64,000 nucleotides of DNA, taken from NCBI GenBank assembly GCA_014607495.2, contig CP053155.1:124001-188000 (forward strand), given 5' to 3'. Below the pieces are notes generated by a model, which was not told the origin of the DNA, made no database searches, and saw only the letters and a list, made by a program, of their open reading frames with translations. This document shows, in pieces, positions 31,497-61,704 of this stretch. A program made the position numbers and the translations under genes. Origin of the DNA: Carposina sasakii (taxonomy: Eukaryota > Arthropoda > Insecta > Lepidoptera > Carposinidae). Position 1 is the stretch's first letter; each line of letters starts with the position of its first letter.

Positions 31497-31510
31497 GTTT
31501 CGACTAACAT
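31124..31510 (-). pseudogene. p33: P33 sulfhydryl oxidase, N-terminal half
   Basis: From ATG 31510, about 128 residues match the start of baculovirus P33, the core FAD-linked thiol oxidase that forms disulfides in viral envelope proteins (VRYRDSFSLFVYRMLD, FTYT/FSFSTIWNSLH-type block). The gene is truncated at the junction with the coiled-coil gene near 31121, before the catalytic CxxC expected further on, so no enzyme could be made. It is divergent from p18, the standard neighbour of p33. Confidence 0.72.
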
Positions 31511-31526
31511 TTTCTTATTTTAAGTC

Positions 31527-32665: not shown

Positions 32666-32708
32666 TAAATGTTCTGTTGTCTTATCGCTGCTGTGTTTTT
32701 TTAACGAG

Positions 32709-33290
32709 CCACTCTTTGAGCACTAGTTGTGCGCTAGAATTATTTACAAGCACACAAATTGGATAGCTGACGTCTCGCAGTAACTCGGGTAGTGTGCTAT
32801 TACTTGCATCTATGAGAGCGTACACCATTTTATTGCAATCGTAGCGCACCATGAGATTGTTGCTGTCTATTTCGGTGAAATCGACACCCTAAAACACTAT
32901 AAAAAGATTTTTGAATTGTTTTATCGCAAAATTATTGGTGCTTCGATGATACACGTTGGTTCCGCTGAGGGGATTGTTGAGAACGCCCATGAAGACGGTA
33001 TTTGCAATCCCCTCAGATCGATCTCCCTGTTCTACGATTTGGTCGTAATTAACGGGCGCCTCCGTCACTAGAACTTTACTAAAATTGGTGTCACCGTGTG
33101 AAATGCGAACATTTTTTATTTTGGTGTTATTTAGACTTATATTGGCGCGTCCCTCTGGAGTAAATTGAATTGAGTCGCCGCTGGATTGACCCGAACTTTC
33201 GTTAAGTGAATTGGCGTTCAGTTTCTCGTTTACCCATAGCAAATAAAGCACCGCGCCAATAACCAACAGTAGCACAATAGTTCCCAACAT
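32709..33290 (-). pseudogene. odv-e25: odv-e25 copy 2 (left arm), stop and truncated 3' end
   Basis: ATG at 33290. Compared with the intact copy at 18066 it has a 4-codon insertion (SEGI, near 33008) created by a short duplication, an in-frame TAG at 32889-32891 where the intact copy has a Lys codon, and loss of the last 20 or so codons at 32709, where the sequence jumps to the PIF-type fragment. Confidence 0.85.
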
Positions 33291-33359
33291 GATTTGTCTT
33301 ATAGAGTGTATTACAAATTTGAAAATTCTTACACTATACAATTTTAAGAAATTTACAAC

Positions 33360-33480
33360 CCCGAGTCCAACTTAATCTCAGAATTTTGAGCGGAAAATAA
33401 TTTTACAAATTAACTAGGACTCGAGGCAGAAATTTAACCAGTGTTTTCTCTTGAAAAATTTACTGAGTGTCGAGGCACTC
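33360..33480. repeat. diverged hr-like palindrome (left arm)
   Basis: A degenerate relative of the main hr palindrome: GAGTCCAACTTAATCTCAGA, TTTTGAGCGGAAAATAAT, GGACTCGAG, ending in ACTGAGTGTCGAGGCACTCG. Many substitutions relative to the arrays, and the SalI satellite is absent. Confidence 0.7.
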
Positions 33481-33496
33481 GTTTGGTCGACCGACT

Positions 33497-33736
33497 CTAT
33501 TCATTTTCCCTGACAAAGTTTTCGTAGGCGCTTTTTGTGTTGTCCAACAACGGCTTTACTATCTCAAAAACCCTGTCTTTTGTATTTTTCGACATCAATT
33601 CGGCACACCGCGCCATTAGTGTGTCTATGAAGCATTTTTCAGCCTCTGAAATTCCATTTTTATTTTTTATATCTACATGTACATCGTGCAATCTGTTCCA
33701 TTCCACTTGTTCTTCATAGTTTAAAATGTTTTCCAT
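33497..33736 (-). CDS. small 79-aa helical protein (left arm)
   Basis: ATG at 33736. Acidic and helical, no family recognised. Conserved without change in three copies (here, 60845 and 61705), and its 5' end overlaps the divergent 72-aa ORF by 11 bp. Repeated retention of an open frame supports coding. Confidence 0.55.
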   Translation of the reverse strand: MENILNYEEQVEWNRLHDVHVDIKNKNGISEAEKCFIDTLMARCAELMSKNTKDRVFEIVKPLLDNTKSAYENFVRENE

Positions 33737-33944
33737 ATTTTTTGACGATAGTTTCGTTTATATCAACTGGTACGATATCTTGCAACAGATGATTTTATGT
33801 AATTTTGAAAGCGTCGATAAAAAAATGCTACTGTGCGACAGGTTAAAAATTGTGGCGACCAATGAACGTCGCCACAATTCTAACTCGATCCGATGTATTT
33901 CGGTATGTACCGAAACCTGGGTTTATACGGAACGGGTAGTGTAG
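33726..33944 (+). CDS. small 72-aa ORF divergent from the 79-aa gene
   Basis: ATG at 33726. The N-terminal half looks protein-like (MFSIFFDDSFVYINWYDILQ), while the C-terminal part runs through a hairpin (33848-33879) and varies between arms. It may be the truncated start of a larger viral gene. No family recognised. Confidence 0.35.
   Translation: MFSIFFDDSFVYINWYDILQQMILCNFESVDKKMLLCDRLKIVATNERRHNSNSIRCISVCTETWVYTERVV
33848..33879. repeat. perfect 12-bp stem, 8-base loop hairpin
   Basis: AATTGTGGCGAC and GTCGCCACAATT flank CAATGAAC. The right-arm counterpart keeps the inner stem but has lost an outer pair. It may mark a recombination scar or a terminator-like structure. Confidence 0.7.
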
Positions 33945-34005
33945 TATCGCTGGGAAAATATGTAAATAAATTGTACAACATAAGTTGAGTAATAAACCAA
34001 ATAAT

Positions 34006-34296
34006 TTATTTGCCTTTTTTAATAATCGTACAGAAACCTTCTTCTGTGCAAATGCATATCCAATCGTCGCCGCCGCGTAATCTCAGCACCAGGTGCAGAG
34101 TGCTTTCCTTTTGAATGTTGTAGTCCTCCAGGCGGTGTTCGTCCTCAAGTTGTTTTCCGGCAAAAATCAACCGCTGTTGATTCGGCGGCACACCCTCCTT
34201 ATCGGCGATTTTTTGCTTAACAGTCGCCACGGTGTCGCCGCTCTCCACGTCCAGCGTGACCGTCTTACCCGTTAGTGTCTTTACAAAGATTTGCAT
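34006..34296 (-). CDS. v-ubi: viral ubiquitin (left arm, intact)
   Basis: 96 aa. Residues 1-76 are ubiquitin ([12 protein letters not shown] start, [20 protein letters not shown] centre, ending LVLRLRGG), followed by a 20-residue extension with three cysteines. Baculoviruses encode a variant ubiquitin in virions that may limit degradation of short-lived proteins. Substitutions from host ubiquitin ([11 protein letters not shown]..., NQQ) fit the viral type. It is divergent from the 39K-like gene across 90 bp. Confidence 0.93.
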
Positions 34297-34386
34297 GATC
34301 TGAGCGCGTATCTAGAATGACGCTGAATCGTTAATGTTGGTATACTTATAGAGACACTTTACACATTATTAAGGTCTACCCACGTC

Positions 34387-35133
34387 ATGACTTCTCCGGG
34401 AACGTCTTTAGATAGTAGCAGTGATGCTGTTATTAACGAGGGAAGCGCCGATGGACAAAGAAAAATCAACGTGTTCATCAGTGACAATTTCATATATTTT
34501 CCCTACAAACACATGAGCGAAACCATTGTCGGGGAGAAGGCGAACGTCAATCGAATCACCGTCTTCGTGCCGACATTTGAGGATGAAAAGGCTATTTCTA
34601 AACAAATCATTGCCAGGGAAACCGGTTATAGTCGTATAGAGGTCATCAAATATGTTTCTCATTTTCAAGAGGCGATCGAAATAGAAACGGGTGTGGTGGT
34701 CTATTGGAATGTCATTATACCGATCAAAACGACCGGCGTCGGAACCACACTGGTGTACAGCGTGGTGCTCAGCGACAATGTATATCCGTTTCAAAACATT
34801 TTCTTCACGGCGCCGTTAAATCTCAAGTGTCCGCTTCAGGCGGATTACAGCAGCGCCATGGTGTGTCTCAAGGGCGAATTGGCGGGCGATACGGAGGAAT
34901 TGAAAAAGGCCGCCAACCTTCAAACCAAAGAGTTTTTAGTTCATTTCGAAAAACACACCCCCATGGGTATCAAAATATTGAACACTAAGCGGTTTTTGAT
35001 CGCAATCAGCAAACGAGAAATTCCCGTCAAAGTGTGCATCTATCTGACACACGAAGAGCTCGGCCTTGAAACCAGTCGCCCTCATGAACTCCAACAATTC
35101 CATAATGTCCGAGTTGATGAATTACAATTATGA
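34387..35133 (+). CDS. 248-aa protein, candidate 39K/PP31-like (left arm)
   Basis: The ATG at 34387 opens an intact 248-codon frame: an acidic Ser-rich N-terminus (1-25), then a beta-rich region (INVFISDNFIYFPYK, VVVYWNVIIPI, TLVYSVVLSDN) and a basic C-terminal half. Size and divergent placement next to viral ubiquitin match the position of 39K/PP31, a DNA-binding late-expression factor, in several baculoviruses, but the Lys/Ser-rich tail of that protein is not evident. The 3' end overlaps the pk-1 start region. Confidence 0.5.
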   Translation: MTSPGTSLDSSSDAVINEGSADGQRKINVFISDNFIYFPYKHMSETIVGEKANVNRITVFVPTFEDEKAISKQIIARETGYSRIEVIKYVSHFQEAIEIETGVVVYWNVIIPIKTTGVGTTLVYSVVLSDNVYPFQNIFFTAPLNLKCPLQADYSSAMVCLKGELAGDTEELKKAANLQTKEFLVHFEKHTPMGIKILNTKRFLIAISKREIPVKVCIYLTHEELGLETSRPHELQQFHNVRVDELQL

Positions 35134-35863
35134 AGTGGTAAAAAAATTGTCCCAAAATGACGAAAAGTCTTACAGTAACATATATATATGCAAGAAAAAG
35201 AACGGGGGCGACCAGAGACGGTACATTTGTAAAACCGTGAAACGAAGCGGTTTCAATTCGCTGGAATTTGATGTACACATTTTGATGAAATCCAATCCCC
35301 ACTTTATAAAATTAAACCATTTTATTTACAACACCGAAGGAGACGTTATACTGATCATGGAATACATCAGCGACGGCGATCTTTTTGATTTCATCAAAAG
35401 GGGTGATCAGCGTCTGAGCGAACCGGCGTGTCGCAAACTGCTCATCACTTTGGTGACGGCGTTAAACGATTTGCACACCCAAAACATCATTCACAACGAC
35501 ATCAAACTGGAGAACTTGCTGTATGATCGAAAAAAAAAACGCCTGTATATTTGCGATTATGGATTGTCACGAATTGTGGGCACGCGATCGTGCCACGACG
35601 GAACCACGCTGTATTTTTCCCCCGAAAAAATTAAATACGAACCGTACCAACCGTCGTTCGATTGGTGGGCGGTGGGAGTCGTGGCCTACGAAATATTGTC
35701 GGGAGAGTACCCGTACGAGATAAACGACGAGAGCGAAGAGATCATCGACTCTATTGCAACCGAGGACATGCTGAAATTTTATACAAAACCGCCACCAACC
35801 ATCAGAGGGACCATTAATGGCAAACTCAAGAACCATGCTGCGATTGCACAGAGGTTTAGGTAA
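35084..35863 (+). CDS. pk-1: protein kinase 1 (left arm, intact frame)
   Basis: Ser/Thr kinase, about 259 aa from ATG 35084 (a second ATG at 35105 is also possible). Visible motifs: the ATP-binding Lys in YICKTVKR, catalytic loop HNDIKLENL (HRD changed to HND), metal-binding DYG (for DFG), SPE (for APE) and FDWWAVGVVAYE of subdomain IX. The glycine loop is degenerate. Baculovirus PK-1 acts in very late gene expression and phosphorylates viral basic protein. The frame ends at QRFR 35863, just before the hr array, so the extreme C-terminus may be clipped, but length is near normal. Confidence 0.82.
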   Translation: MNSNNSIMSELMNYNYEVVKKLSQNDEKSYSNIYICKKKNGGDQRRYICKTVKRSGFNSLEFDVHILMKSNPHFIKLNHFIYNTEGDVILIMEYISDGDLFDFIKRGDQRLSEPACRKLLITLVTALNDLHTQNIIHNDIKLENLLYDRKKKRLYICDYGLSRIVGTRSCHDGTTLYFSPEKIKYEPYQPSFDWWAVGVVAYEILSGEYPYEINDESEEIIDSIATEDMLKFYTKPPPTIRGTINGKLKNHAAIAQRFR

Positions 35864-35922
35864 AATCATGAACGTATAAAGAACAACGGACGTAATGCTG
35901 TCACTGCACAGATTGAAGCCAT

Positions 35923-37084
35923 TCGTCGACACAAAAGTAGTGGATTTCGTCGACACACGAGTCTGAACTATTTTAGAATTCTGAGCGAAAAATAATTTCA
36001 CAAATTTACTCGGACTCGAGTCAGGGATTTGAGTAGTGTCATTTCTTGTAAAATCTACTGAGTGTCGACAAATTGAGTGGTTTTCGTCGTCGACCCAAAA
36101 GTAGTGTTTTTCGTCGACCCATTCGTCGACCCATTCGTCGACACAAAAGTAGTGGATTTCGTCGACCCATTCGTCGACACAAAAGTAGTGGATTTCGTCG
36201 ACCCATTCGTCGACACATTCGTCGACACAAAAGTAGTGGATTTCGTCGACCCATTCGTCGACACAAAAGTAGTGGATTTCGTCGACCCATTCGTTGACAC
36301 GAAAGTAGTGGATTTCGTCGACACACGAGTCTGAATTATTTTAGAATTCTGAGCGAAAAATAATTTCACAAATTTACTCGGACTCGAGTCAGGGATTTGA
36401 GTAGTGTCATTTCTTGTAAAATCTACTGAGTGTCGACAAATTGAGTGGTTTTCGTCGTCGACACAAAAGTAGTGGTTTTCGTCGACCCATTTTTCGTCGA
36501 CACGAAAGTAGTGGATTTCGTCGACCCATTCGTCGACACAAAAGTAGTGGATTTCGTCGACCCATTTTTCGTCGACACAAAAGTAGTGGATTTCGTCGAC
36601 ACACGAGTCTGAATTATTTTAGAATTCTGAGCGAAAAATAATTTCACAAATTTACTCGGACTCGAGTCAGGGATTTGAGCAGTGTCATTTCTTGTAAAAT
36701 CTACTGAGTGTCGACAAATTGAGTGGTTTTCGCCGTCGACCCAAAAGTCAATGCGCGTACAATTTACTGAGTGTCGACAAATTGAGTGGTTTTCGTCGTC
36801 GACACGAAAGTAGTATTTTTCGTCGACACGAAAGTAGTGTTTTTTTTTGTCGACACAAAAATAGTGTTTTTCGTCGTCGACACAGTAGTGGTTTTTGTTA
36901 GTCTATGCAAAAGTTGCAATTTACTGAGTGTCGACTAATTGAGTGGTTTTCGTTGTCGACCAAAAAGTAGTGAATTTCGTCGACCATTTTTCGTCGACAC
37001 ACGAGTCTGAATTATTTTAGAATTTAGAGCGAAAAATAATTTCACAAATTTACTCGGACTCGAGTCAGGGATTTGAGTAGTGTC
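35923..37084. repeat. hr array between pk-1 and p74 (left arm)
   Basis: Four to five composite units. Each has one AGAATTCT palindrome block (about 130 bp through to ACTGAGTGTCGAC) and a variable number of 36-bp satellite units (GTCGACGAAATCCACTACTT... on the minus strand). Because 36 is a multiple of 3, long spurious frames occur on both strands; none is a gene. A variant block at 36740-36990 contains shortened units. Confidence 0.92.
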
Positions 37085-37159
37085 GTGACTGCAGAAATGA
37101 CGCTGTTGGTGTTGGACCGGGCTACAACCACCATACTTATTTTATTATATTAGTATTAT

Positions 37160-38317
37160 TTATTTAATTTGATGTTTTACTAGTTTTGTATAATATTGTA
37201 ATGACGGTAAAAACAGTAGAAGACAAGACAAAACCACCAGAAGCGCAAACAAAATTTCCAAGTGAATTTTGCTTTTAAAAGTCAGTCTTCGATGGTGTTT
37301 CAGATAGTACAAAAATCCGCTGATGGACGCCAAGAAACCCACGCCTATAAATATGTTATTCAAGGGACTCGGTTTGACCACTAGTTCGTTGTGACGCGCA
37401 CAAAACCATTTAAAATAGAGCCAAGTGTCGTTGGCCGCCAACCCGGCGCCCACCAGCTGTTCCTCGTCCACGTCGCTCACCTCGTCGCCCACCGTTAGGT
37501 CCACGATCTGCCCGTTGCTGTTTACGTCCAGGGCGGCCATATAATCCACCAAATGAAGCATAGACTCTGTGAAATAGTCCTCTTCGTCGTCCACCACCAG
37601 ATTGGAAAAGTGTTTGGGCGCGAACTCAATCAAATCGCGCGAGGGCGCATCGAGAGACTCGTAGTAGGCCGACAAAAACGCGGTGGAGAGGTCGTCTAGG
37701 TATCCGCGAGGGAACATATTGTTGTAACCGAACGGGTCCCACACCATTAGCACCAAGTCGGCGATGGTCAAGAACGTCAACGCTATATTCACCAGCGAGG
37801 CGGCAGCTTTCACCGTTCTGACGGTGGCCTTCGCGAGGGTGGTCACCGTGGCTATGAGAGTGCGATTGAGCGCGTGGATGGCGGCCGCCTTGTAAGTTTC
37901 TCCCAGTAGAGCGACGGTCATCCGTCTCGTTTGCATGAGAAGCATTCTGCGCAAAGACGGAATCAACACTTTGTTTATTTGTTTCAACATTGTGGTAAGG
38001 GTGGATTCTAGCACGTTAAAACCCAGATCGGCGAGGATGCCCATTATGAACGCGTGATCTTCGAGAAAGTCCATAATAATGTTTTCGAGTTGGTTTTCGT
38101 CGTAACCTTTGGGGGTTTTTAACGCGCCAAGGGTAGGATGATAATTTTCAACCACCGGTTTTTCTCTCGCAAACCTCGCCAACGTTTGCACCCTTCGTTC
38201 CAACAATTCTTCCACCAAACCCCTAGCTCTAACAGTCGCAGTTCGTTGACTACTACTACTACTAGGATTAATAAAACTGAATCCTTCGTTGGCCGTATAC
38301 CGCAACACCTTCTTCAT
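37160..38317 (-). pseudogene. p74: P74 (PIF-0), C-terminal part only (left arm)
   Basis: The frame gives 385 aa from ATG 38317, against about 650 for P74, an ODV envelope protein required for midgut binding. Residues from about 90 on carry the conserved P74 C-terminal domain (DLVLMVWDPFGYNN, AYYESLDAPSRDLIEF, YFKWFCARHNE), with two membrane helices near the end (residues about 325-345 and 350-372). The roughly 270-residue N-terminal domain is missing and replaced by about 70 residues of unrelated Ser/Arg-rich sequence. The frame itself is intact, flanked on both sides by hrs. Confidence 0.82.
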
Positions 38318-38446
38318 GCTCACTTCAGTTCTGAAAGTGTATATGTGTATATGAGGTACAGTGAGGCATCATAGTGTATACGTAAGATGTAAGATGGGGT
38401 CGAGCGTTAAATGTTTACAATAAAAACAACTTTTGATTTTATGGTG

Positions 38447-39782
38447 ACCCATTTTTCGTCGACACGAAAGTAGTGGATTTCGTCGACCCATTCGTCAACA
38501 CAAAAGTAGTGGATTTCGTCGACCCATTCGTCGACACAAAAGTAGTGGATTTCGTCGACCCATTCGTCGACACAAAAGTAGTGGATTTCGTCGACCCATT
38601 CGTCGACACAAAAGTAGTGGATTTCGTCGACCCATTCGTCGACACAAAAGTAGTGGCTTTCGTCGACCCATTCGTCGACACGAAAGTAGTGGATTTCGTC
38701 GACCCATTTTTCGTCGACACAAAAGTAGTGGATTTCGTCGACACACGAGTCTGAATTATTTTAGAATTCTGAGCGAAAAATAATTTCACAAATTTACTCG
38801 GACTCGAGTCAGGGATTTGAGTAGTGTCATTTCTTGTAAAATCTACTGAGTGTCGACAAATTGAGTGGTTTTCGTCGTCGACACAAAAGTAGTGGTTTTC
38901 GTCGACCCATTTTTCGTCGACACGAAAGTAGTGGATTTCGTCGACCCATTCGTCGACACAAAAGTAGTGGATTTCGTCGACCCATTCGTCAACACAAAAG
39001 TAGTGGATTTCGTCGACCCATTCGTCGACACAAAAGTAGTGGATTTCGTCGACCCATTCGTCGACACAAAAGTAGTGGATTTCGTCGACCCATTCGTCGA
39101 CACGAAAGTAGTGGATTTCGTCGACCCATTTTTCGTCGACACAAAAGTAGTGGATTTCGTCGACACACGAGTCTGAATTATTTTAGAATTCTGAGCGAAA
39201 AATAATTTCACAAATTTACTCGGACTCGAGTCAGGGATTTGAGTAGTGTCATTTCTTGTAAAATCTACTGAGTGTCGACAAATTGAGTGGTTTTCGTCGT
39301 CGACACAAAACTAGTGGTTTTCGTCGACCCATTTTTCGTCGACACAAAAGTAGTGGATTTCATCGACCCATTCGTCGACACAAAAGTAGTGGATTTCGTC
39401 GACACACGAGTCTGAATTATTTTAGAATTCTGAGCGAAAAATAATTTCACAAATTTACTCGGACTCGAGTCAGGGATTTGAGCAGTGTCATTTCTTGTAA
39501 AATCTACTGAGTGTCGACAAATTGAGTGGTTTTCGTCGTCGACACAAAAGTAGTGGTTTTCGTCGACCCATTCGTAGACCCATTTTTCGTCGACCCATTT
39601 TTTGTCGACCCATTTTTTGTCGACACAAAAGTAGTGGATTTCGTCGACACAAAAGTAGTGGATTTCGTCGACACCCGAGTCTGAATTATTTTAGAATTCT
39701 GAGCGAAAAATAATTTCACAAATTTCCTCGGACTCGAGTCGTGGATTTGAGTAGTGTCATTTCTTGTAAAATTTACTGAGTT
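38447..39782. repeat. hr array between p74 and the 161-aa gene (left arm)
   Basis: Four palindrome blocks with 2-8 satellite units each. It shows the same modules as the other arrays; the last palindrome (39670-39780) is slightly divergent and ends against unique sequence. No gene inside. Confidence 0.92.
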
Positions 39783-40354
39783 TTTAAAAGACATTCTTCG
39801 TTTGACTTTTTCGTGGTACAAAAGTTGTTGAGTACTTTTTACCAAGAGCACACCCGTGGTATCGCCATATAAAATGATTGATGTTTCCCGTTAGTTCTTC
39901 ATCATCAAATTCTCAGTATCACTAATCGGTTAATGATATTTCCTTCAACCTTTCTTTGTGACACTAATCAGTCACTAGGTTTGGTTTTATTACAACCTTT
40001 AGTTTATCAGTCAATAAATTACACCCTTATCAGTATAACTTTTCTTTGTACCACCAAGCACGAATCGGTTACTGGGTTTTATTACAGCCTTTACTTTTAT
40101 CAATAGTTATCATCAGTCAATAAATTATACCCCTATTAACTTTATCAAAAGCAGTTATCAGTCAATAAATTATACCCCTATTAATTTTATCAAAAGCAGT
40201 TAACAGTCAATAAATTATCTATCCCAACGTTATATTTCTAGACCACCACACTGGTATATATTGACCACCACACTAGTTATACTCTAGAGCACTACAACCA
40301 CCGATTGACCACCGCACTAGTTATACTTCTAGAGCACTACAACCACCGACAATC
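39783..40354. repeat. AT-rich leader with degenerate direct repeats (left arm)
   Basis: Repeats of a CAGTCAATAAATTATACCCC-like motif (three to four) and of a CTAGAGCACTACAACCACCG-type motif just upstream of the 161-aa gene. No ORF. The copies differ in number from the mirror region 43830-44385. Confidence 0.65.
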
Positions 40355-40840
40355 ATGAACTCCAATGTGGTAATATTCGATATTCAGGGTTTTAAAGATA
40401 CAAACAAGGAGTTTATTGTAAAAGAAGCCGCGATAGCCACTGAATTTATTACACAAGTGTTTATGTTTAAACCGCCGTGCTCCTATCACAAGCTATCTGG
40501 CGAGGAAAAGAAGACGGTGCGCTGGCTCGAGACAAATCGTGGTATTCGCTGGAGCGAGGGTCATATTAATTACGCAGACCTAAAGCGCGTCCTCATGCCG
40601 TTCCTACAATATAAAACGGTTCTGGTAAAAGGTGTGGAAAAGGCGGAATGGGTGAAGGAATTGGCACCGTTTTCCATGCCGGAGGATATGGAAACCCAGG
40701 GATGTCCCACTTTGAAGGAATTGAGTGCTCGATACACCAGGGGTTGTGAATTTAATTGTATATCTCATTTGAACCATTGTGCGTTAAAAAATGTATTATG
40801 TTTGAAAAAGTGGTATACTACTGATGTGAATAATAAATAG
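40355..40840 (+). CDS. 161-aa protein, possible exonuclease-like fold (left arm)
   Basis: ATG at 40355. It starts VVIFDIQGFKDTNKEFIVKEAAI, a beta strand with an acidic residue followed by a helix, and continues with a Cys/His-containing C-terminus. The opening resembles DEDD/RNase H-like exonuclease folds and a protein family scattered through insect genomes and mobile DNA, but catalytic residues are not clear. Both arm copies are open and differ by about ten amino acids without stops, which suggests constraint or youth. Function unknown. Confidence 0.62.
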   Translation: MNSNVVIFDIQGFKDTNKEFIVKEAAIATEFITQVFMFKPPCSYHKLSGEEKKTVRWLETNRGIRWSEGHINYADLKRVLMPFLQYKTVLVKGVEKAEWVKELAPFSMPEDMETQGCPTLKELSARYTRGCEFNCISHLNHCALKNVLCLKKWYTTDVNNK

Positions 40841-40884
40841 AACAATGTACAAAATAAAAGACTTCTGATTTACTCAATACACCT

Positions 40885-41140
40885 AGAGCACTAGAAAGGT
40901 TGTCATTTAGGCACATTATTTTATTTAAATTTGCGCCATCTAACGAAAGTGGGGTGAGCTGATTTACTAAAACACTAGAAAGGTTGTCATTTAGGCACAT
41001 TATTTTATTTAAATTTGCGCCATCTAACGAAACTGGGGTGAACTGATTTACTAAAACACTAGAAAAGTTGTCATTTAGGCACATTATTTTATTTAAATTT
41101 GCGCCATCTAACGAAAGTGGGGTGAACTGATTTACTAAGT
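40885..41140. repeat. 84-bp tandem repeat, three copies (left arm)
   Basis: Three copies with period 84 bp (CTAGAAAGGTTGTCATTTAG at 40891, 40975 and 41059). Being 28 codons long, the unit gives an open minus-strand frame, MCLNDN...SLDGANLNKI repeated. It is more likely intergenic repeat than gene. Confidence 0.8.
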
Positions 41141-41258
41141 TGATAGGTACATATATTATTAATTAAACGTTGCTATTTTTAATAATTACAATAGAATTTC
41201 CCAAAGTTGAGACGATAATTTAATAGTATACATAAAACTCGAGCGGTGACGGCGCGCA

Positions 41259-41360
41259 ATGAAGTTGCAATTACTACTGGTTGTTGTGCTGATCGATTTG
41301 GTGGTTTTCGCCGGCGCGCAGTGTAGAAGTCGACTCTCTTCCATGCTCGCCTATCTCTGA
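41259..41360 (+). pseudogene. insulin-like peptide gene, truncated left-arm copy
   Basis: This is the signal peptide and B-chain-like part of the gene at 42734-42925. It is cut at the palindrome's inner edge, where TGC of the second cysteine becomes TGA. The upstream sequence matches the right arm. Confidence 0.85.
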
Positions 41361-41533: not shown

Positions 41534-42361
41534 CTACGAATAATATAGACGAATAGCGCCGGTGAACAGTTTCCTGCAAATCGGACATTGGTCGCAGCAG
41601 ACTATGCACCGGGCGCACACCGCCACATGACCGCACGGTATCAGAGCCACGTCTCTTTTTTCCGAACAGCATATCACGCAGAGGTGTTCGTCTCGAATAG
41701 TCGCGGTCTTATCGTTTAATTCCACCGGCGGGGGCGAGGGCGCGGGACTTTTCACCTCGCACGTCTCCGTGGTCACCTTCTGCACATAATCTTTACCTTT
41801 CAGCAACAAAACAAATGCGCAATTTGGGTACCACTGCGCGTGCTACTGCCAAGGATCGTCTTCGCGTTTCCAATCCCTCAGGCCGCCGCCGCAATAAAAG
41901 TATTGCGTGAAATCGCTGCGACCCGAGTAAAAAAACCCCGCTTCCACCAGCTGTTCGGGCGTTTGCTGCAAAGAAATGGGCCAGTTCCAGAAAGTCAACA
42001 ACCGAGCCGACTCCAGGGCGTAATAGGGGTGCACCGGTTTGGTCATGTGCACAATGTTTGTGTCGGTATTCGTGGTGAGACACTCGTCTTCGTCCAACGG
42101 GATTACTCGACGGCCGCTCTCTTTGGCCTTTAAAAATGGACACTGTGGCACCCAGCGTCTGTGCTCCTGTTCGGGGTCGTCGTTTTCCAGCCACCGCACG
42201 ATTTCCACTTTGCAGAAAGCGCAACGCACCTCGTCGTTTCGGCCCACGTAGTAGAACCCGTTTTTGGCGAAACGTTCGGGCTCCGGAAACGGCAGGGGCC
42301 AATTGTCAAAAGTTTTCAACCGCTCCCTTTCCAAAAGCATTTTATCAACGCTAGAATTCAT
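41534..42361 (-). pseudogene. iap: inhibitor of apoptosis: two BIRs and a RING, broken
   Basis: One frame from ATG 42361 through a single in-frame TAG at 41843-41845 to 41534, 275 codons, the size of baculovirus IAP-3. BIR1 (residues about 12-80) has a complete CAFC...H...C zinc set. In BIR2 (about 112-178) the first zinc cysteine of the usual CFYCGGGL is Tyr (YFYCGGGL), and the stop falls just before its His. The C-terminal RING (CVICCSEKRDVALIPCGH...CPIC) is intact. Family role: binding caspases or their activators and ubiquitin ligation to block host cell death. It is the only unique gene in the palindrome spacer; 41361-41530 and 42362-42733 hold no other gene. Confidence 0.9.
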
Positions 42362-42733
42362 TTTCTCGGTAGAATATTTTTTAATTTTTCATCCATGAAC
42401 AACTTATATGGTGGAAGCGAGAATGAGCACTGTCGATGGGCGAGGGTGTCGGGTTTCTTAGCCTTTTATACTTCAGGATAATTAAGTTAACTATCGCACT
42501 TTGTGTCATCTTCCACGGTGAAACGCACTCTAGTACATTTAGTATTTAGTGTTAATCACGGAAAGGGCGCAAGCAGTTTTGTAGTACGTTGTACCTAATT
42601 TTAAGTCCTAGAATATTTAAAGAATAATAAATAAAAATAAATGAAACTATCAACATCTTAAATCTGAATAAACACACACAAATTATTTTTACATGTTGTC
42701 TTTTTTCATCATCCACCACGCAAGGTACTCGTT

Positions 42734-42925
42734 CTAGTTGCAATAATATTCCATTAGCTCGGTGATGGTGCACGGTTTATCACAGCAGTCTTGTCGCGGC
42801 ACCCTGTCAATGGAATTGTCGTTGCAGAGATAGGCGAGCATGGAAGAGAGTCGACTTCTACACTGCGCGCCGGCGAAAACCACCAAATCGATCAGCACAA
42901 CAACCAGTAGTAATTGCAACTTCAT
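42734..42925 (-). CDS. secreted insulin/bombyxin-like peptide
   Basis: 63 aa from ATG 42925. Residues 1-20 are a strong signal peptide (MKLQLLLVVVLIDLVVFAGA). The mature 43 residues have six cysteines as C-x11-C-x12-CC-x3-C-x9-C. The first pair (CRSRLSSMLAYLC) copies an insulin B chain: x11 spacing, Leu at +4, +8 and +11. The second group (CCDKPCTITELMEYYC) resembles an A chain with Pro before the third cysteine and Tyr before the last, but is one residue longer than the usual x8. RVPR before the A part is a minimal furin site. A conotoxin-like knottin (C-C-CC-C-C) is the main alternative. Baculovirus insulin-like genes are not something I know of; capture from a host is inferred. Confidence 0.62.
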   Translation of the reverse strand: MKLQLLLVVVLIDLVVFAGAQCRSRLSSMLAYLCNDNSIDRVPRQDCCDKPCTITELMEYYCN

Positions 42926-43054
42926 TGCGCGCCGTCACCGCTCGAGTTTTATGTATACTATTAAATTATCGTCTCAACTTTGGGAAATTCTATTGTAATT
43001 ATTAAAAATAGCAACGTTTAATTAATAATATATGTACCTATCAACTTAGTAAAT

Positions 43055-43305
43055 CAGTTCACCCCACTTTCGTTAGATGGCGCAAATTTAAATAAAATAA
43101 TGTGCCTAAATGACAACTTTTCTAGTGTTTTAGTAAATCAGTTCACCCCAGTTTCGTTAGATGGCGCAAATTTAAATAAAATAATGTGCCTAAATGACAA
43201 CCTTTCTAGTGTTTTAGTAAATCAGTTCACCCCACTTTCGTTAGATGGCGCAAATTTAAATAAAATAATGTGCCTAAATGACAACCTTTCTAGTGCTCTA
43301 GGTGT
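43055..43305. repeat. 84-bp tandem repeat, three copies (right arm)
   Basis: Mirror image of 40885-41140 with the same period and copy number. Confidence 0.8.
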
Positions 43306-43343
43306 ATTGAGTAAATCAGAAGTCTTTTATTTTGTACATTGTT

Positions 43344-43829
43344 TTATTTATTATTCACATCAGTAGTATACCACTTTTTCAAACATAATACATTTTTTAA
43401 TGCACAATGTTTTAAATGATATATACAATTAAATTCCCAATCCCTGGTGTATCGCGCACTCAATTCCTTTAAAGTGGGACATCCCTGGGTTTCCATATCC
43501 TCCGGCATGGAAAACGGTGCCAATTCCTTCACCCATTCCACCTTTTCCGCACCTTTTACCAGAACCGTTTTATATTGTAGGAACGGCATGAGGACGCGCT
43601 TTAGGTCTGCGTAATTAATATGACCCTCGCTCCAGTGAATACCACGATTTGTCTCGAGCCAGCGCACCGTCTTCTTTTCTTCGGCAGATAGCTGGTGATA
43701 TGAGCACGGCGGTTTAAACAAAAACACTTGTGTAACAAATTCAGTGGCTATCGCGGCTTCTTTTACAATAAACTCCTTGTTTGTATCTTTAAAACCCTGA
43801 ATATCGAATATTACCACATTGGAGTTCAT
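43344..43829 (-). CDS. 161-aa protein (right arm)
   Basis: Counterpart of 40355-40840 with an intact frame from ATG 43829. Differences include Tyr-His-Gln for Tyr-His-Lys, GAEKV for GVEKA and RDWEF for RGCEF: mostly substitutions rather than indels, unlike neighbouring genes. The span 43830-44385 upstream is AT-rich leader with repeats and no gene. Confidence 0.62.
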   Translation of the reverse strand: MNSNVVIFDIQGFKDTNKEFIVKEAAIATEFVTQVFLFKPPCSYHQLSAEEKKTVRWLETNRGIHWSEGHINYADLKRVLMPFLQYKTVLVKGAEKVEWVKELAPFSMPEDMETQGCPTLKELSARYTRDWEFNCIYHLKHCALKNVLCLKKWYTTDVNNK

Positions 43830-44385
43830 GATTGTCGGTGGTTGTAGTGCTCTAGAGTATAACTAGTGCGGTGGCTGGTAGTGCTCTAGAGTATAACTAG
43901 TGCGGTGGCTAATATATACCAGTGTGGTGCTCTAGAAATATAACGTTGGGACAGATAATTTATTGACTGATAACTGCTTTTGATAAAACTAATAGGGGTA
44001 GATAAATTATTTATTGACTGATAACTAAAGCTTTTGATAAAACCATAGTTAAATAATTTATTGACTGATGATAACTATTGATAAAAGTAAAGGCTGTAAT
44101 AAAACCCAGTAACCGATTCGTGCTTGGTGGTACAAAGAAAAGTTATACTGATAAGGGTGTAATTTATTGACTGATAAACTAAAGGTTGTAATAAAACCAA
44201 ACCTAGTGACTGATTAGTGTCACAAAGAAAGGTTGAAGGAAATATCATTAACCGATTAGTGATACTGAGAATTTGATGATGAAGAACTAACGGGAAACAT
44301 CAATCATTTTATATAGCGATATCACGGGTGTGCTCTTGGTAAAAAGTACTCAACAACTTTTGTACCACGAAAAAGTCAAACGAAG

Positions 44386-45832
44386 AATGTCTTTTAAAAA
44401 CTCAGTAAATTTTACAAGAAATGACACTACTCAAATCCACGGCTCGAGTCCGAGGAAATTTGTGAAATTATTTTTCGCTCAGAATTCTAAAATAATTCAG
44501 ACTCGGGTGTCGACGAATGGGTCGACGAAATCCACTACTTTTGTGTCGACGAAATCCACTACTTTTGTGTCGACAAAAAATGGGTCGACAAAAAATGGGT
44601 CGACGAAAAATGGGTCTACGAATGGGTCGACGAAAACCACTACTTTTGTGTCGACGACGAAAACCACTCAATTTGTCGACACTCAGTAGATTTTACAAGA
44701 AATGACACTGCTCAAATCCCTGACTCGAGTCCGAGTAAATTTGTGAAATTATTTTTCGCTCAGAATTCTAAAATAATTCAGACTCGTGTGTCGACGAATG
44801 GGTCGATGAAATCCACTACTTTTGTGTCGACGAATGGGTCGACGAAATCCACTACTTTTGTGTCGACGAAAAATGGGTCGACGAAAACCACTAGTTTTGT
44901 GTCGACGACGAAAACCACTCAATTTGTCGACACTCAGTAGATTTTACAAGAAATGACACTACTCAAATCCCTGACTCGAGTCCGAGTAAATTTGTGAAAT
45001 TATTTTTCGCTCAGAATTCTAAAATAATTCAGACTCGTGTGTCGACGAAATCCACTACTTTTGTGTCGACGAAAAATGGGTCGACGAAATCCACTACTTT
45101 CGTTTCGACGAATGGGTCGACGAAATCCACTACTTTTGTGTCGACGAATGGGTCGACGAAATCCACTACTTTTGTGTCGACGAATGGGTCGACGAAATCC
45201 ACTACTTTTGTGTCGACGAATGGGTCGACGAAATCCACTACTTTTGTGTTGACGAATGGGTCGACGAAATCCACTACTTTTGTGTCGACGAATGGGTCGA
45301 CGAAATCCACTACTTTCGTGTCGACGAAGGGTCGACGAAAACCACTACTTTTGTGTCGACGACGAAAACCACTCAATTTGTCGACACTCAGTAGATTTTA
45401 CAAGAAATGACACTGCTCAAATCCCTGACTCGAGTCCGAGTAAATTTGTGAAATTATTTTTCGCTCAGAATTCTAAAATAATTCAGACTCGTGTGTCGAC
45501 GAAATCCACTACTTTTGTGTAGACGAAAAATGGGTCGACGAAATCCACTACTTTTGTGTCGACGAATGGGTTGACGAAAACCACTACTTTTGTGTCGACG
45601 AATGGGTCGACGAAATCCACTACTTTTGTGTCGACGAATGGGTCGACGAAATCCACTACTTTTGTGTCGACGAATGGGTCGACGAAATCCACTACTTTTG
45701 TGTCGACGAATGGGTCGACGAAATCCACTACTTTTGTGTCGACGAATGGGTCGACGAAATCCACTACTTTTGTGTTGACGAATGGGTCGACGAAATCCAC
45801 TACTTTCGTGTCGACGAAAAATGGGTCACCAT
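44386..45832. repeat. hr array (right arm, mirror of 38447-39782)
   Basis: Same palindrome blocks and satellite units in inverse orientation, with slightly different unit numbers and point changes such as GTTGAC for GTCGAC. Confidence 0.92.
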
Positions 45833-45955
45833 AAAATCAAAAGTTGTTTTTATTGTAAACATTTAACGCTCGACCCCATCTTACATCTTACGTATACACT
45901 ATGATGCCTCACTGTACCTCATATACACATATACACTTTCAGAACTGAAGTGAGC

Positions 45956-47114
45956 ATGAAGAAGGTGTTGCGGTATACGGCCAACGAAGGATTCAGTTTT
46001 ATTAATCCTAGTAGTAGTAGTAGTCAACGAACTGCGACTGTTAGAGCTAGGGGTTTGGTGGAAGAATTGTTGGAACGAAGGGTGCAAACATTGGCGAGGT
46101 TTGCGAGAGAAAAACCGGTGGTTGAAAATTATCATCCTACCCTTGGCGCGTTAAAAAACCCCCAAAGGTTACGACGAAAACCAACTCGAAAACATTATTA
46201 TGGACTTTCTCGAAGATCACGCGTTCATAATGGGCATCCTCGCCGATCTGGGTTTTAACGTGCTAGAATCCACCCTTACCACAATGTTGAAACAAATAAA
46301 CAAAGTGTTGATTCCGTCTTTGCGCAGAATGCTTCTCATGCAAACAAGACGGATGACCGTCGCTCTACTGGGAGAAACTTACAAGGCGGCCGCCATCCAC
46401 GCGCTCAATCGCACTCTCATAGCCACGGTGACCACCCTCGCGAAGGCCACCGTCAGAACGGTGAAAGCTGCCGCCTCGCTGGTGAATATAGCGTTGACGT
46501 TCTTGACCATCGCCGACTTGGTGCTAATGGTGTGGGACCCGTTCGGTTACAACAATATGTTCTCTCGCGGATACCTAGACGACCTCTCCACCGCGTTTTT
46601 GTCGGCCTACTACGAGTCTCTCGATGCGCCCTCGCGCGATTTGATTGAGTTCGCGCCCAAACACTTTTCCAATCTGGTGGTGGACGACGAAGAGGACTAT
46701 TTCACAGAGTCTATGCTTCATTTGGTGGATTATATGGCCGCCCTGGACGTAAACAGCAACGGGCAGATCGTGGACCTAACGGTGGGCGACGAGGTGAGCG
46801 ACGTGGACGAGGAACAGCTGGTGGGCGCCGGGTTGGCGGCCAACGACACTTGGCTCTATTTTAAATGGTTTTGTGCGCGTCACAACGAACTAGTGGTCAA
46901 ACCGAGTCCCTTGAATAACATATTTATAGGCGTGGGTTTCTTGGCGTCCATCAGCGGATTTTTGTACTATCTGAAACACCATCGAAGACTGACTTTTAAA
47001 AGCAAAATTCACTTGGAAATTTTGTTTGCGCTTCTGGTGGTTTTGTCTTGTCTTCTACTGTTTTTACCGTCATTACAATATTATACAAAACTAGTAAAAC
47101 ATCAAATTAAATAA
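45956..47114 (+). pseudogene. p74: P74 C-terminal part (right arm), frameshifted
   Basis: Copy of 37160-38317. An extra A in the run near 46153-46158 (six A in place of five) shifts the frame after about 67 codons. The downstream 304-codon frame (46200-47114) is intact and carries one Pro-to-Ser change at NNMFSR. Confidence 0.85.
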
Positions 47115-47184
47115 ATAATACTAATATAATAAAATAAGTATGGTGGTTGTAGCCCGGTCCAACACCAACAGCGTCATTTCTGCA

Positions 47185-49185
47185 GTCACGACACTACTCA
47201 AATCCCTGACTCGAGTCCGAGTAAATTTGTGAAATTATTTTTCGCTCTAAATTCTAAAATAATTCAGACTCGTGTGTCGACGAAAAATGGTCGACGAAAT
47301 TCACTACTTTTTGGTCGACAACGAAAACCACTCAATTAGTCGACACTCAGTAAATTGCAACTTTTGCATAGACTAACAAAAACCACTACTGTGTCGACGA
47401 CGAAAAACACTATTTTTGTGTCGACAAAAAAAAACACTACTTTCGTGTCGACGAAAAATACTACTTTCGTGTCGACGACGAAAACCACTCAATTTGTCGA
47501 CACTCAGTAAATTGTACGCGCATTGACTTTTGGGTCGACGGCGAAAACCACTCAATTTGTCGACACTCAGTAGATTTTACAAGAAATGACACTGCTCAAA
47601 TCCCTGACTCGAGTCCGAGTAAATTTGTGAAATTATTTTTCGCTCAGAATTCTAAAATAATTCAGACTCGTGTGTCGACGAAATCCACTACTTTTGTGTC
47701 GACGAAAAATGGTCGACGAAATCCACTACTTTTGTGTCGACGAATGGGTCGACGAAATCCACTACTTTCGTGTCGACGAAAAATGGGTCGACGAAAACCA
47801 CTACTTTTGTGTCGACGACGAAAACCACTCAATTTGTCGACACTCAGTAGATTTTACAAGAAATGACACTACTCAAATCGCTGACTCGAGTCCGAGTAAA
47901 TTTGTGAAATTATTTTTCGCTCAGAATTCTAAAATAATTCAGACTCGTGTGTCGACGAAATCCACTACTTTTGTGTCGACGAAAAATGGGTCGACGAAAT
48001 CCACTACTTTCGTGTCGACGAATGGGTCGACGAAATCCACTACTTTTGTGTCGACGAATGGGTCGACGAAATCCACTACTTTTGTGTAGACGACGAAAGA
48101 AAACCACTCAATTTGTCGACACTCAGTAGATTTTACAAGAAATGACACTGCTCAAATCCCTGACTCGAGTCCGAGTAAATTTGTGAAATTATTTTTCGCT
48201 CAGAATTCTAAAATAATTCAGACTCGTGTGTCGACGAAATCCACTACTTTTGTGTCGACGAAAAATGGGTCGACGAAATCCACTACTTTCGTGTCGACGA
48301 ATGGGTAGACGAAATCCACTACTTTTGTGTCGACGAATGGGTCGACGAAATCCACTACTTTTGTGTCGACACTCAGTAGATTTTACAAGAAATGACACTA
48401 CTCAAATCCCTGACTCGAGTCCGAGTAAATTTTTTTGAAATTATTTTTCGCTCAGAATTCTAAAATAATTCAGACTCGTGTGTCGACGAAATCCACTACT
48501 TTTGTGTCGACGAATGGGTCGACGAAATCCACTACTTTTGTGTCGACGAATGTGTCGACGAATGGGTCGACGAAATCCACTACTTTTGTGTCGACGAATG
48601 GGTCGACGAAATCCACTACTTTTGTGTCGACGAATGGGTCGACGAAATCCACTACTTTTGTGTCGACGAATGGGTCGACGAAATCCACTACTTTTGTGTC
48701 GACGAATGGGTCGACGAATGGGTCGACAAAAAACATTACTTTTGGGTCGACGACGAAAACCACTCAATTTGTCGACACTCAGTAGATTTTACAAGAAATG
48801 ACACTACTCAAATCCCTGACTCGAGTCCGAGTAAATTTGTGAAATTATTTTTCGCTCAGAATTCTAAAATAATTCAGACTCGTGTGTCGACGAAATCCAC
48901 TACTTTTGTGTCGACGAATGGGTCGACGAAATCCACTACTTTTGTGTCGACGAATGGGTCGACGAAATCCACTACTTTCGTGTCGATGAAAAATGGGTCG
49001 ACGAAAACCACTACTTTTGTGTCGACGACGAAAACCACTCAATTTGTCGACACTCAGTAGATTTTACAAGAAATGACACTACTCAAATCCCTGACTCGAG
49101 TCCGAGTAAATTTGTGAAATTATTTTTCGCTCAGAATTCTAAAATAATTCAGACTCGTGTGTCGACGAAATCCACTACTTTTGCC
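47185..49185. repeat. hr array, first part (right arm)
   Basis: At least six palindrome blocks. It corresponds to 35923-37084 of the left arm but is longer. It ends at 49185 in a short unique patch (GCCGCGGTCTAAAGCCGAGG) that joins to a second copy of the p74-side flank. Confidence 0.92.
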
Positions 49186-49554
49186 GCGGTCTAAAGCCGA
49201 GGCTTAAAGGTTAATCCTAGGCGGTAGGTCGAGGCCCGGTCCAACACCAACAGCGTCATTTCTGCAGTCACCACACTACTCAAATCCCTGACTCGATTCC
49301 GAGTAAATTTGTGAAATTATTTTTCGCTCTAAATTCTAAAATAATTCAGACTCGTGTGTCGACGAAATCCACTACTTTTGTGTCGACGAAATTCACTACT
49401 TTTTGGTCGACAACGAAAACCACTCAATTAGTCGACACTCAGTAAATTGCAACTTTTGCATAGACTAACAAAAACCACTACTGTGTCGACGACGAAAAAC
49501 ACTATTTTTGTGTCGACAAAAAAAACCACTACTTTCGTGTCGACGAAAAACACT
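49186..49554. repeat. duplicated p74-proximal hr edge
   Basis: CCCGGTCCAACACCAACAGC and the following block at 49227-49550 repeat 47154-47470, showing that the right-arm array grew by a segmental duplication of about 2 kb. The Penelope-like element landed in this second copy. Confidence 0.8.
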
Positions 49555-52160: not shown

Positions 52161-53726
52161 GATCCTACAAATAAATTCAATGCAGAATTGAAGAAATGTA
52201 TTGCCAATTCAGAATATATTTTTCCCAAAAAATGCCCCCATTTAATTGAACGCGTAATTTCAATGAATCCTGTCACACCAATGTTATACGGTTTACCAAA
52301 ATTACATAAAATTAATATTCCTGTTAGACCTGTAGTTTCCTATATTGGAGCGCCTGCATATAAATTGGCAACGTTTTTAAATAACTATATAAAGGAAAAA
52401 ATTCAATTCACACCTAAGTATAGTGTTAAAAATAGTTTAGATTTAATAGAAAAAATTAAATATATAGAATTGCCTACAAATTCAAAATTATTTTCATTAG
52501 ATGTAGAAAGTTTGTTTACAAATGTTCCTTATAAAGATTGTTTAGACATAATTAAGACTTGGTGTGATAAAGTCAATTTACATCCAACGGAGGTTGATAA
52601 CATTATTGGACTGACTAGACTTTGTATGAACCAAAATTATTTTTGTTATCGGAACACCTATTATTTACAGAAGGATGGTTTGGCTATGGGTTCTCCGTTG
52701 TCACCGTTTCTTGCAGAAATTTTTATGGATTGGTATGAAAATAAGTTTATAGTTAACAATAGTAAGATAAAATATTATTTTAGATATGTAGATGATGTTA
52801 TCTTGTGTTGGACAGGCTCAGTGAGACAGTTTCATGTTTTTGTCAACAAAATTAATACCAAGCATGCCAAAATTAAATTCAAAATTGAAGAAGAAGTTAA
52901 TAATAGCATACATTTTTTGGATTTAACTATATCAAGATTAGATAAATTTCATGATTTTGCTGTATACCGGAAACCTACCCATACAGATGTCACAATACCG
53001 GTTGATTCTTTCCACCCATGGCAACATAAATTAGCGGCTTATAAGTCTATGATACATAGACTGGTAACTTTACCGCTTAACAATTACAATTATAATAAAG
53101 AATTTAATACCATTGTTCAAATTGCCAGATCTAATGGGTACAGTCCTCAATTAATTTATAATCTGGTCAATAAAAAGGAAAACATTTTGGTTAAACAAAT
53201 GTTATACCCTAAAGTTTATCAGATTCAAAAACCATACACTGGTAGTTTGACATATTATGGAGGTTTTTCAGAAAAATTATCTATATTATTAAAAAAAGAA
53301 GACATATTTGTGGCGTTTAGGACTTATAATTCATTACAAAAGTTAATTAACACAAAACAAAAGTTGGAACTTAAAAAGAAATCAGGTGTATACCAGTTGA
53401 AGTGTGATGAATGTGATGCTTGTTACATTGGACAAACTGGTCGCAGTTTTAATGTTCGATACAAGGAACATATATCAGCTTTTAGAAATGGTAATCCTAA
53501 TAAATCCAACTTTGCCGAACATTTACTCCAGGCGGGCCACTCCCTGGCAGATAATAATGAGTTAAGAGTTCTACATGTTGCAGATAAAGGCATCCGTCTG
53601 TCTATTTTAGAAAAACTAGAAATTATGAAAGCAAAATTTTCAGGTATTAATTTGGTAAATAATCAAATAGATTTTGTAAACACTAGCCCAGTTTTGGCTG
53701 CAATCTGTCAATGTCAAAGTCAATAG
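52158..53726 (+). CDS. Penelope-like RT/GIY-YIG protein, plus copy, 5' truncated
   Basis: Uninterrupted frame of about 520 codons without its N-terminus or an ATG: RT fingers and palm (VTPMLYGLPKLHK, FSLDVESLFTNVP, MGSPLSPFLAEI, FRYVDDVIL), then a Cys-rich linker (KCDECDACYIG) and a GIY-YIG endonuclease to the end. All catalytic motifs are visible. The domain order is the one specific to Penelope-like elements. Confidence 0.88.
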   Translation, partial: FDPTNKFNAELKKCIANSEYIFPKKCPHLIERVISMNPVTPMLYGLPKLHKINIPVRPVVSYIGAPAYKLATFLNNYIKEKIQFTPKYSVKNSLDLIEKIKYIELPTNSKLFSLDVESLFTNVPYKDCLDIIKTWCDKVNLHPTEVDNIIGLTRLCMNQNYFCYRNTYYLQKDGLAMGSPLSPFLAEIFMDWYENKFIVNNSKIKYYFRYVDDVILCWTGSVRQFHVFVNKINTKHAKIKFKIEEEVNNSIHFLDLTISRLDKFHDFAVYRKPTHTDVTIPVDSFHPWQHKLAAYKSMIHRLVTLPLNNYNYNKEFNTIVQIARSNGYSPQLIYNLVNKKENILVKQMLYPKVYQIQKPYTGSLTYYGGFSEKLSILLKKEDIFVAFRTYNSLQKLINTKQKLELKKKSGVYQLKCDECDACYIGQTGRSFNVRYKEHISAFRNGNPNKSNFAEHLLQAGHSLADNNELRVLHVADKGIRLSILEKLEIMKAKFSGINLVNNQIDFVNTSPVLAAICQCQSQ

Positions 53727-58665: not shown

Positions 58666-58719
58666 TTCAATCTGTGCAGTGACAGCATTACGTCCGTTGT
58701 TCTATATACGTTCATGATT

Positions 58720-60195: not shown

Positions 60196-60285
60196 GACGT
60201 GGGTAGACCTTAATAATGTGTAAAGTGTCTCTATAAGTATACCAACATTAACGATTCAGCGTCATTCTAGATACGCGCTCAGATC

Positions 60286-60573: not shown

Positions 60574-60636
60574 AAATTATTTGGTTTATTACTCAACTTA
60601 TGTTGTACAATTTATTTACATATTTTCCCAGCGATA

Positions 60637-61084: not shown

Positions 61085-61099
61085 AGTCGGTCGACCAAA

Positions 61100-61220: not shown

Positions 61221-61290
61221 GGTTGTAAATTTCTTAAAATTGTATAGTGTAAGAATTTTCAAATTTGTAATACACTCTATAAGACAAATC

Positions 61291-61683: not shown

Positions 61684-61704
61684 ACGAAACTATCGTCAAA
61701 AAAT

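What the first reader, a model, noticed from the sequence alone, without database searches (positions are those of the whole stretch)
42734..42925. Insulin/bombyxin-like peptide inside a viral gene block
Signal peptide plus C-x11-C ... CC-x3-C-x9-C, with B-chain-like leucines at +4, +8 and +11 and an RxxR site between the parts. Viral insulins are known from fish iridoviruses; I know of none in baculoviruses. If real, it would be a candidate hormone mimic acting on insect growth or metabolism. The A part is one residue longer than in canonical insulins, and a conotoxin-like knottin remains possible.
Basis: partly seen in the sequence, partly recalled or inferred. Interest (0 to 1): 0.9.

Follow-up and report, generated by a model that had tools for sequence, protein, structure and literature searches.

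The report
Moth insulin relative in endogenous granulovirus
A tiny, shortened relative of a moth insulin hormone sits among the remains of an insect virus that entered a moth-like chromosome, which suggests that this virus may once have carried a copy of its host's growth hormone.

Summary
The 63-aa ORF is real and is derived from a lepidopteran bombyxin (insect insulin), not a knottin by descent. Bombyxin profiles that leave it out score it 28.8-33.3 bits; the next of 1004 window ORFs reaches 9.4. A tree joins it to one bombyxin gene on another contig of the same genome (96/91). Over the mature parts dS is 1.95 and dN 0.069, so most of its divergence was under constraint.

It departs from ordinary insulins: a 12-residue link between the chains (23-58 in 44 relatives), Arg for the conserved B-chain Gly, one extra A-chain residue. 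A fish iridovirus insulin that blocks a receptor also has a short link and lacks that Gly (PMC9637144, passages).

The 'viral gene block' is not a free baculovirus but an endogenous, rearranged granulovirus in a 399-Mb, 31-contig assembly. The complete ORF was found once; its fragments were found only at C8:122-265 kb.

Uptake by the virus before integration is my favoured reading (0.5). Host DNA brought in later is not excluded: a mobile-element ORF and a dispersed host repeat flank the gene. No carrier virus was found, and the virus collection searched shows no baculovirus.

The parts
42734..42925 (-). Complete 63-aa bombyxin-derived ORF: signal-like residues 1-20, B part C22-C34, 12-residue link, A part C47-C62
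   Evidence: bombyxin profiles; tree
42824..42862 (-). B-chain-like part (C-x11-C, Leu at +4, +8, +11; Arg in place of the conserved Gly)
42740..42787 (-). A-chain-like part CC-x3-C-x9-C (last loop one residue longer than in 44 of 44 measurable relatives)
41259..41360 (+). Copy of the same gene in the left arm of the inverted repeat, cut off at codon 34; its first 101 bases are identical to the complete ORF
36171..41359 (+). Left arm of a large inverted repeat
42825..48093 (-). Right arm of the inverted repeat (96.5% over 5294 columns, gaps counted); it begins inside the insulin ORF
42454..42657 (-). Dispersed host repeat between the insulin stop and the iap start: 48 of the 55 matches listed are pieces of it, 45 of them on other contigs
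   Evidence: 40 of 373 candidates scored
43046..43300 (+). Three tandem copies of an about 84-base repeat upstream of the insulin ORF; matches listed only at C8:164-265 kb
43344..43829 (-). 161-aa ORF of a dispersed, mobile-element-like family; 99 of 106 matches lie outside the viral cluster at 60% identity or less
41843..42361 (-). iap-like ORF (BIR domains), ended by an in-frame stop; an intact copy exists in L004 (C8:118-124.5 kb)
37160..38317 (-). p74 fragment, nearest to granulovirus p74
46200..47114 (+). Second p74 fragment on the other arm

Best explanation
A granulovirus of a moth took up a bombyxin gene from a host, and the gene was trimmed to a minimal secreted peptide: signal peptide, B part, a 12-residue link and A part. 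The virus later integrated near one end of a chromosome-sized contig, and the locus was copied and rearranged there. The likely action is that the peptide is secreted from infected cells and binds the insect insulin receptor in place of bombyxin. The short link and the lost B-chain Gly make a single-chain partial agonist or antagonist likelier than a full agonist; it would shift larval growth, nutrient use or immunity in the virus's favour. Shown here: ORF, homology, nearest relative, past constraint, trimmed layout, endogenous granulovirus setting. Inferred: uptake before integration (the confidence given is for this step), secretion, folding, receptor binding and direction of effect (about 0.25 for the whole chain).
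For: Bombyxin profiles without it score 28.8-33.3 bits (E 8e-8 to 3e-9); next of 1004 ORFs 9.4, best of 10,000 shuffles 20.7. Sister to host L016, 96/91. dS 1.95, dN 0.069 on 32 codons; a neutral branch of 0.2 changes per site gave at most 5 replacements in 1.0% of 20,000 simulations, 0.4 or more in none. Outside the coding part, matches to the L016 locus are chance-level (E 2 or more), so it is no recent segmental copy. All pieces found lie at C8:122-265 kb in the virus-bearing stretch. The neighbouring iap abuts a baculovirus DUF816 gene in another copy, and the linkage of iap to the insulin 3' end is kept in a second copy, 2 mismatches in 1427 bases. Short link and missing Gly recall the LCDV-1 viral insulin, a receptor antagonist (PMC9637144, passages); other viral insulins share short C-domains (PMC10831276, passages).
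Against: No free virus with the gene was found, but viral contigs also gave no p74 or p18 relative, so that collection cannot tell. A dispersed host repeat and a mobile-element-like ORF flank the gene, so it may have come in as host DNA after integration. A milder neutral null gave P 0.17 and a neutral branch of 0.1 is compatible with the data (33% of runs). Both structure models are of low confidence (pLDDT 67.0 and 59.7) and find no fold match. Against the antagonist part: two other iridovirus insulins with the same kind of link stimulate signalling (SGIV and GIV; PMC10831276, passages), and if the chain is cut after RVPR only two residues remain before the A-chain CC, where vertebrate insulins contact the receptor (recalled), so the peptide could be inactive. 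No AATAAA or ATTAAA within 200 bases after the stop and one TAAG 123 bases before the ATG do not decide. No transcript was examined.
Confidence: 0.5

Rival explanations
1. A host bombyxin copy, perhaps carried by a mobile element, was inserted into the endogenous virus cluster after integration and was then copied with it; it was never a viral gene.
For: A dispersed host repeat lies between it and iap; an ORF of a dispersed family lies upstream; retrotransposons are in the window; the host has at least 12 insulin loci; the nearest relative is in the same genome.
Against: dS of about 1.95 to the nearest host gene, against 0 of 101 bases between the two insulin copies in the arms, 0.14% between two copies of the iap stretch and 0.4-0.6% in p74 pieces (other, repeat-rich stretches differ by up to 3-4%), needs an old, constrained source that was not found elsewhere in this genome. 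No match to the L016 flanks.
Confidence: 0.35
2. An old host paralogue, still a working moth gene, stood at this place and the virus integrated next to it; its reduced form is host evolution.
For: Intact ORF under past constraint; another host insulin also lacks the B-chain Gly (L014).
Against: The copies move with viral sequence, and two of the three protein-level matches in the genome are cut. All 44 measurable relatives have a longer link.
Confidence: 0.1
3. A conotoxin-like knottin of the baculovirus ctl kind.
For: Same order of six cysteines (C, C, CC, C, C), recalled for both folds.
Against: Pfam up to E 10 lists only Insulin (its filters drop most weak matches); the bombyxin homology runs beyond the cysteines.
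Confidence: 0.01
4. Chance ORF with an insulin-like cysteine pattern.
For: Short; below the Pfam cut-off.
Against: 0 in 300 simulations; profile, tree and dN/dS.
Confidence: 0.005

Closest known systems
Lepidopteran bombyxin; in this genome L016 (C13:10174989-10175207, minus)
   Same: Signal, B and A parts; 24 of 29 core residues (one A-loop residue of the query left out); six cysteines in order; sister in the tree
   Different: Link of 12 against 42 residues, Arg for the B-chain Gly, A loop 9 against 8, fewer residues before both cysteine blocks
Viral insulin-like peptides of Iridoviridae (LCDV-1, MFRV and others; PMC9637144 and PMC10831276, passages read)
   Same: Short C-domain (10 residues there); LCDV-1 too has lost the conserved B-chain Gly; tied to a DNA virus
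   Different: Fish viruses with vertebrate-like insulins; here a bombyxin relative, in an endogenous granulovirus, with Arg not Ser. Independent descent is inferred
Granuloviruses (Betabaculovirus); p74 nearest by score to Cryptophlebia leucotreta GV (60%) among named hits
   Same: p74, PIF6, E25, p18, p24, F protein, DUF816
   Different: Endogenous, duplicated and partly broken; no insulin gene of a named baculovirus came up in the searches made here

Membership tests
Insulin/bombyxin family | Significant similarity to members built without the query | tested here: met
   28.8-33.3 bits with three bombyxin profiles; best of 10,000 shuffles 20.7. The 16 proteins of the third profile were found with an alignment that held the query; the two host profiles were not
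Insulin/bombyxin family | Groups inside the family in a tree | tested here: met
   With host L016, 96/91, 29 rows
Insulin/bombyxin family | Pfam PF00049 cut-off (23 bits) | tested here: not met
   11.6 bits
Insulin/bombyxin family | Six cysteines with B spacing 11 and A spacings 3 and 8 | tested here: not met
   B spacing and A spacing 3 fit; the last A loop is 9, against 8 in 44 of 44 measurable relatives. Hence filed as bombyxin-derived, not as a canonical insulin
Insulin/bombyxin family | Gly after the first B-chain cysteine | tested here: not met
   Arg here; Gly in 43 of 44 measurable relatives, Ser in one
Insulin/bombyxin family | Three-helix fold with three disulfides | tested here: inconclusive
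   Two A-part helices and one merged helix over signal and B part; pLDDT 67.0 and 59.7; no Foldseek match
Viral insulin-like peptides | Encoded in a viral genome | tested here: inconclusive
   Inside an endogenous granulovirus cluster; carriage by a free virus not shown
Viral insulin-like peptides | Short C-domain (about 10 residues) | tested here: met
   12 residues (compare)
Viral insulin-like peptides | Binds or blocks a receptor of the insulin kind | not testable with these tools
   Needs a peptide assay
Conotoxin-like knottin (ctl) | Match to a conotoxin-like family | tested here: inconclusive
   No such Pfam family listed up to E 10, with filters that drop most weak matches; baculovirus ctl sequences were not compared
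Endogenous granulovirus | Granulovirus genes inside a host contig with host elements | tested here: met
   G000:C8, 15.3-Mb contig; p74 nearest to granuloviruses; Pao and LINE-type elements

The most novel reading that the evidence does not exclude
A granulovirus carried a captured insect insulin that had become, independently of the fish iridoviruses, a single-chain antagonist through the same two changes: a shortened link and loss of the conserved B-chain Gly. It would be, to my knowledge, the first viral insulin outside Iridoviridae and the first in an insect virus, preserved as a fossil in a moth chromosome.
Probability: 0.25. Interest if true: 0.9.

Novelty: new variant of a known kind. 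Interest (0 to 1): 0.72.

Why it matters
The viral insulins named in the papers seen here are all from Iridoviridae (PMC10831276, passages; listing of 14 papers). A bombyxin-derived gene tied to a granulovirus would be a second, independent uptake of an insulin by a DNA virus, in a group long known (recalled) to alter larval growth and behaviour. It makes a testable question: do insect viruses interfere with insulin signalling directly? The endogenous granulovirus itself is also notable, but its novelty was checked only lightly: 'endogenous baculovirus' with Lepidoptera and genome gave one paper, a vector review; endogenous viral elements with betabaculovirus gave 6; two wider searches gave 50 papers (20 listed) and 11. 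Of all these only passages of PMC5704228 were read.

Tried and rejected

Considered and rejected: chance ORF, recent segmental copy of L016, and knottin by descent. A milder null (half of the 19 differences neutral) gave P 0.17, so constraint on the gene's own branch rests on the branch-length simulation, in which a neutral branch of about 0.1 changes per site is not excluded.

Not obtained: an own-genome search with the iap protein and with the p74 family.

Full report
What was reported and what is there. It is there, open, 63 aa long, with a signal-like start (by eye), C-x11-C with Leu at +4, +8 and +11, an RxxR site and CC-x3-C-x9-C. In six frames the pattern occurs once in the window and in none of 300 Markov-simulated windows.

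Family. Pfam gives Insulin alone, at 11.6 bits, below its cut-off of 23. A search of 5.8 billion proteins with the single peptide found no candidate. The decisive comparison came from the window's own genome. The Insulin family search found 12 loci, all over the cut-off, ten of which give a bombyxin-like ORF with B and A parts. Profiles from these ten, from nine (without the nearest), and from 16 proteins score the ORF at 32.8, 28.8 and 33.3 bits; the 16 were found with an alignment that held the query, the host genes were not. The next of 1004 window ORFs reaches 9.4 bits and the best of 10,000 shuffles 20.7. In a tree of 29 rows it joins the host gene at C13:10174989 (L016) with 96/91 support; 24 of 29 core residues are the same. 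The alignment search returned 35 proteins; the 21 that bear a name are insects and 14 have none.

Selection. Over 32 mature codons compared with L016 there are 14 synonymous and 5 replacement differences: dS 1.95, near saturation, and dN 0.069. Random neutral change of 0.2 per site on the host sequence leaves at most 5 replacements in 1.0% of runs, 0.4 or more in none of 20,000, while 0.1 does so in 33%. A cruder null in which half of the observed differences are neutral gives P 0.17. If, as I take it, a fair part of the divergence lies on this gene's own branch, it was constrained for most of its separate history; recent freedom cannot be excluded.

Layout. Compared with 44 of 45 relatives that could be measured (10 host genes and 34 of 35), the link between the two cysteine blocks is 12 residues against 23-58, the residue after the first B-chain cysteine is Arg against Gly in 43 and Ser in one, and the last A loop is 9 against 8 in all 44. 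Against L016, residues before both cysteine blocks are also missing. All length changes keep the frame.

Setting. The window is G000:C8:124001-188000 of an assembly of 399 Mb in 31 contigs. Pfam finds baculovirus p47 (split over two ORFs), p24, E25 (four ORFs), a helicase fragment, p18 (two), F protein, Ac109 (two) and p74 fragments (two), and Pao and LINE-type retrotransposons. A p74 piece is closest to granuloviruses: among 27 hits (7999 candidates scored) the named granulovirus or betabaculovirus proteins score 306-491 bits and the named nucleopolyhedrovirus ones 225-261. This is an endogenous betabaculovirus. Viral genes or gene fragments were seen from about C8:118.8 kb to about 223.5 kb, and copied pieces of the insulin locus up to about 265 kb.

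Copies and neighbours. A large inverted repeat (36171-41359 and 42825-48093) has its right arm begin inside the insulin ORF, so the left arm holds a copy cut after 33 codons; those 101 bases are identical. A second copy of the iap stretch and of the insulin 3' end lies at C8:122 kb, with 2 mismatches in 1427 bases; there the ORF runs into a minisatellite. Four more places at C8:225-265 kb hold the upstream stretch and the first codons of the ORF, with 9 extra bases after the ATG, and then other sequence. No piece of the coding region was listed elsewhere in the genome (the tool scores the best candidates only, 8 of 8 and 40 of 373). On the iap side lies a stretch of about 200 bases that belongs to a dispersed host repeat (48 of the 55 matches listed, 45 of them on other contigs). 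Upstream lie an 84-base tandem repeat and a 161-aa ORF whose family is dispersed: 106 matches, seven of them in the cluster at 83-100% identity and 99 elsewhere at 60% or less. Two host copies of that family share 3472 identical bases, which suggests that they moved or were copied recently; only the ORF resembles the cluster's. In another copy the 3' end of iap abuts a baculovirus DUF816 gene, so iap is in viral company, whereas insulin has the dispersed-family ORF on its far side.

How it came there. Two readings remain. In the first, the virus took up the gene, perhaps with a mobile element, before it integrated. In its favour are the saturated synonymous divergence from the nearest host gene, set against little divergence between copies in the cluster (0 of 101 bases in insulin; 0.14% in the iap stretch; 0.4-0.6% in p74 pieces and up to 3-4% in repeat-rich stretches), the absence of the L016 flanks, and the restriction to the cluster. 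In the second, host DNA entered the cluster later; the flanking repeat and the dispersed-family ORF speak for it. I put them at 0.5 and 0.35.

How it may work. A viral insulin of a fish iridovirus, LCDV-1, has a 10-residue C-peptide and Ser for the conserved B-chain Gly, and both features matter for its block of the IGF-1 receptor (PMC9637144, passages). Other viral insulins also have short C-domains, and one is secreted as a single chain, but SGIV and GIV insulins stimulate signalling (PMC10831276, passages), so a short link alone does not make an antagonist. The present peptide has a 12-residue link and Arg at that Gly. By analogy I expect a single-chain ligand of the insect insulin receptor with weak or blocking action. 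This is inference: folding, secretion and binding were not shown, both structure models are of low confidence and expression is unknown.

Novelty. The paper searches made here found no insulin in a baculovirus: baculovirus with insulin-like peptide and viral insulin, 0 papers; bombyxin with nucleopolyhedrovirus, insulin-like and viral genome, 0; nucleopolyhedrovirus genome sequence with insulin-like and hypothetical protein, 0; granulovirus with insulin, 25 papers, of which one was opened and has the word only in its references; baculovirus with bombyxin, insulin receptor and infection, 2, not opened. The library lacks most subscription journals. As a kind, viral insulins are known; the source, the virus group and the endogenous setting are new as far as these searches go.

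Noticed in passing
Window 1-64000; G000:C8 about 118-266 kb: A rearranged endogenous granulovirus with several ORFs that look whole (E25, p18, F; p74 of 674 aa and PIF6 in L004) beside broken ones (p47, helicase fragment, iap in the window).
   Followed up: partly
36171-41359 and 42825-48093; also 31435-36528 against 58009-64000: A very large inverted repeat that covers about half the window, broken by minisatellites.
   Followed up: partly
40355-40840 and 43344-43829: 18 of 19 differences between the two 1032-base arms fall in the 161-aa ORF (7 synonymous and 11 replacement codons), while the rest is nearly identical: possible gene conversion or different source copies.
   Followed up: partly
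Genome-wide; cluster copies at C8:164-265 kb: The 161-aa ORF family has several dispersed subfamilies with many equal-scoring copies; the cluster's subfamily was found only inside the endogenous virus and may have come in with it.
   Followed up: partly
L020-L023 (C8:225-265 kb): Four near-identical units hold the insulin leader with 9 extra bases after the ATG (reading MSMRK...), then a junction to other sequence.
   Followed up: partly
L014 (C8:9208501-9208689): A host insulin locus with Ser in place of the B-chain Gly and a long branch; perhaps a divergent insulin class.
   Followed up: no
36000-40000, 44400-49500, 54300-58700: Long arrays of a GTCGACGAA-type minisatellite between viral fragments; it stands at several junctions.
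   Followed up: no
52263-53726: ORF with a reverse transcriptase domain and a weak GIY-YIG match, the domain pair of Penelope-like elements (recalled).
   Followed up: no
14666-15526 and 15618-16418: ORFs with MSV199/T5orf172 domains (bro-like, recalled) and with a chitin-binding domain.
   Followed up: no
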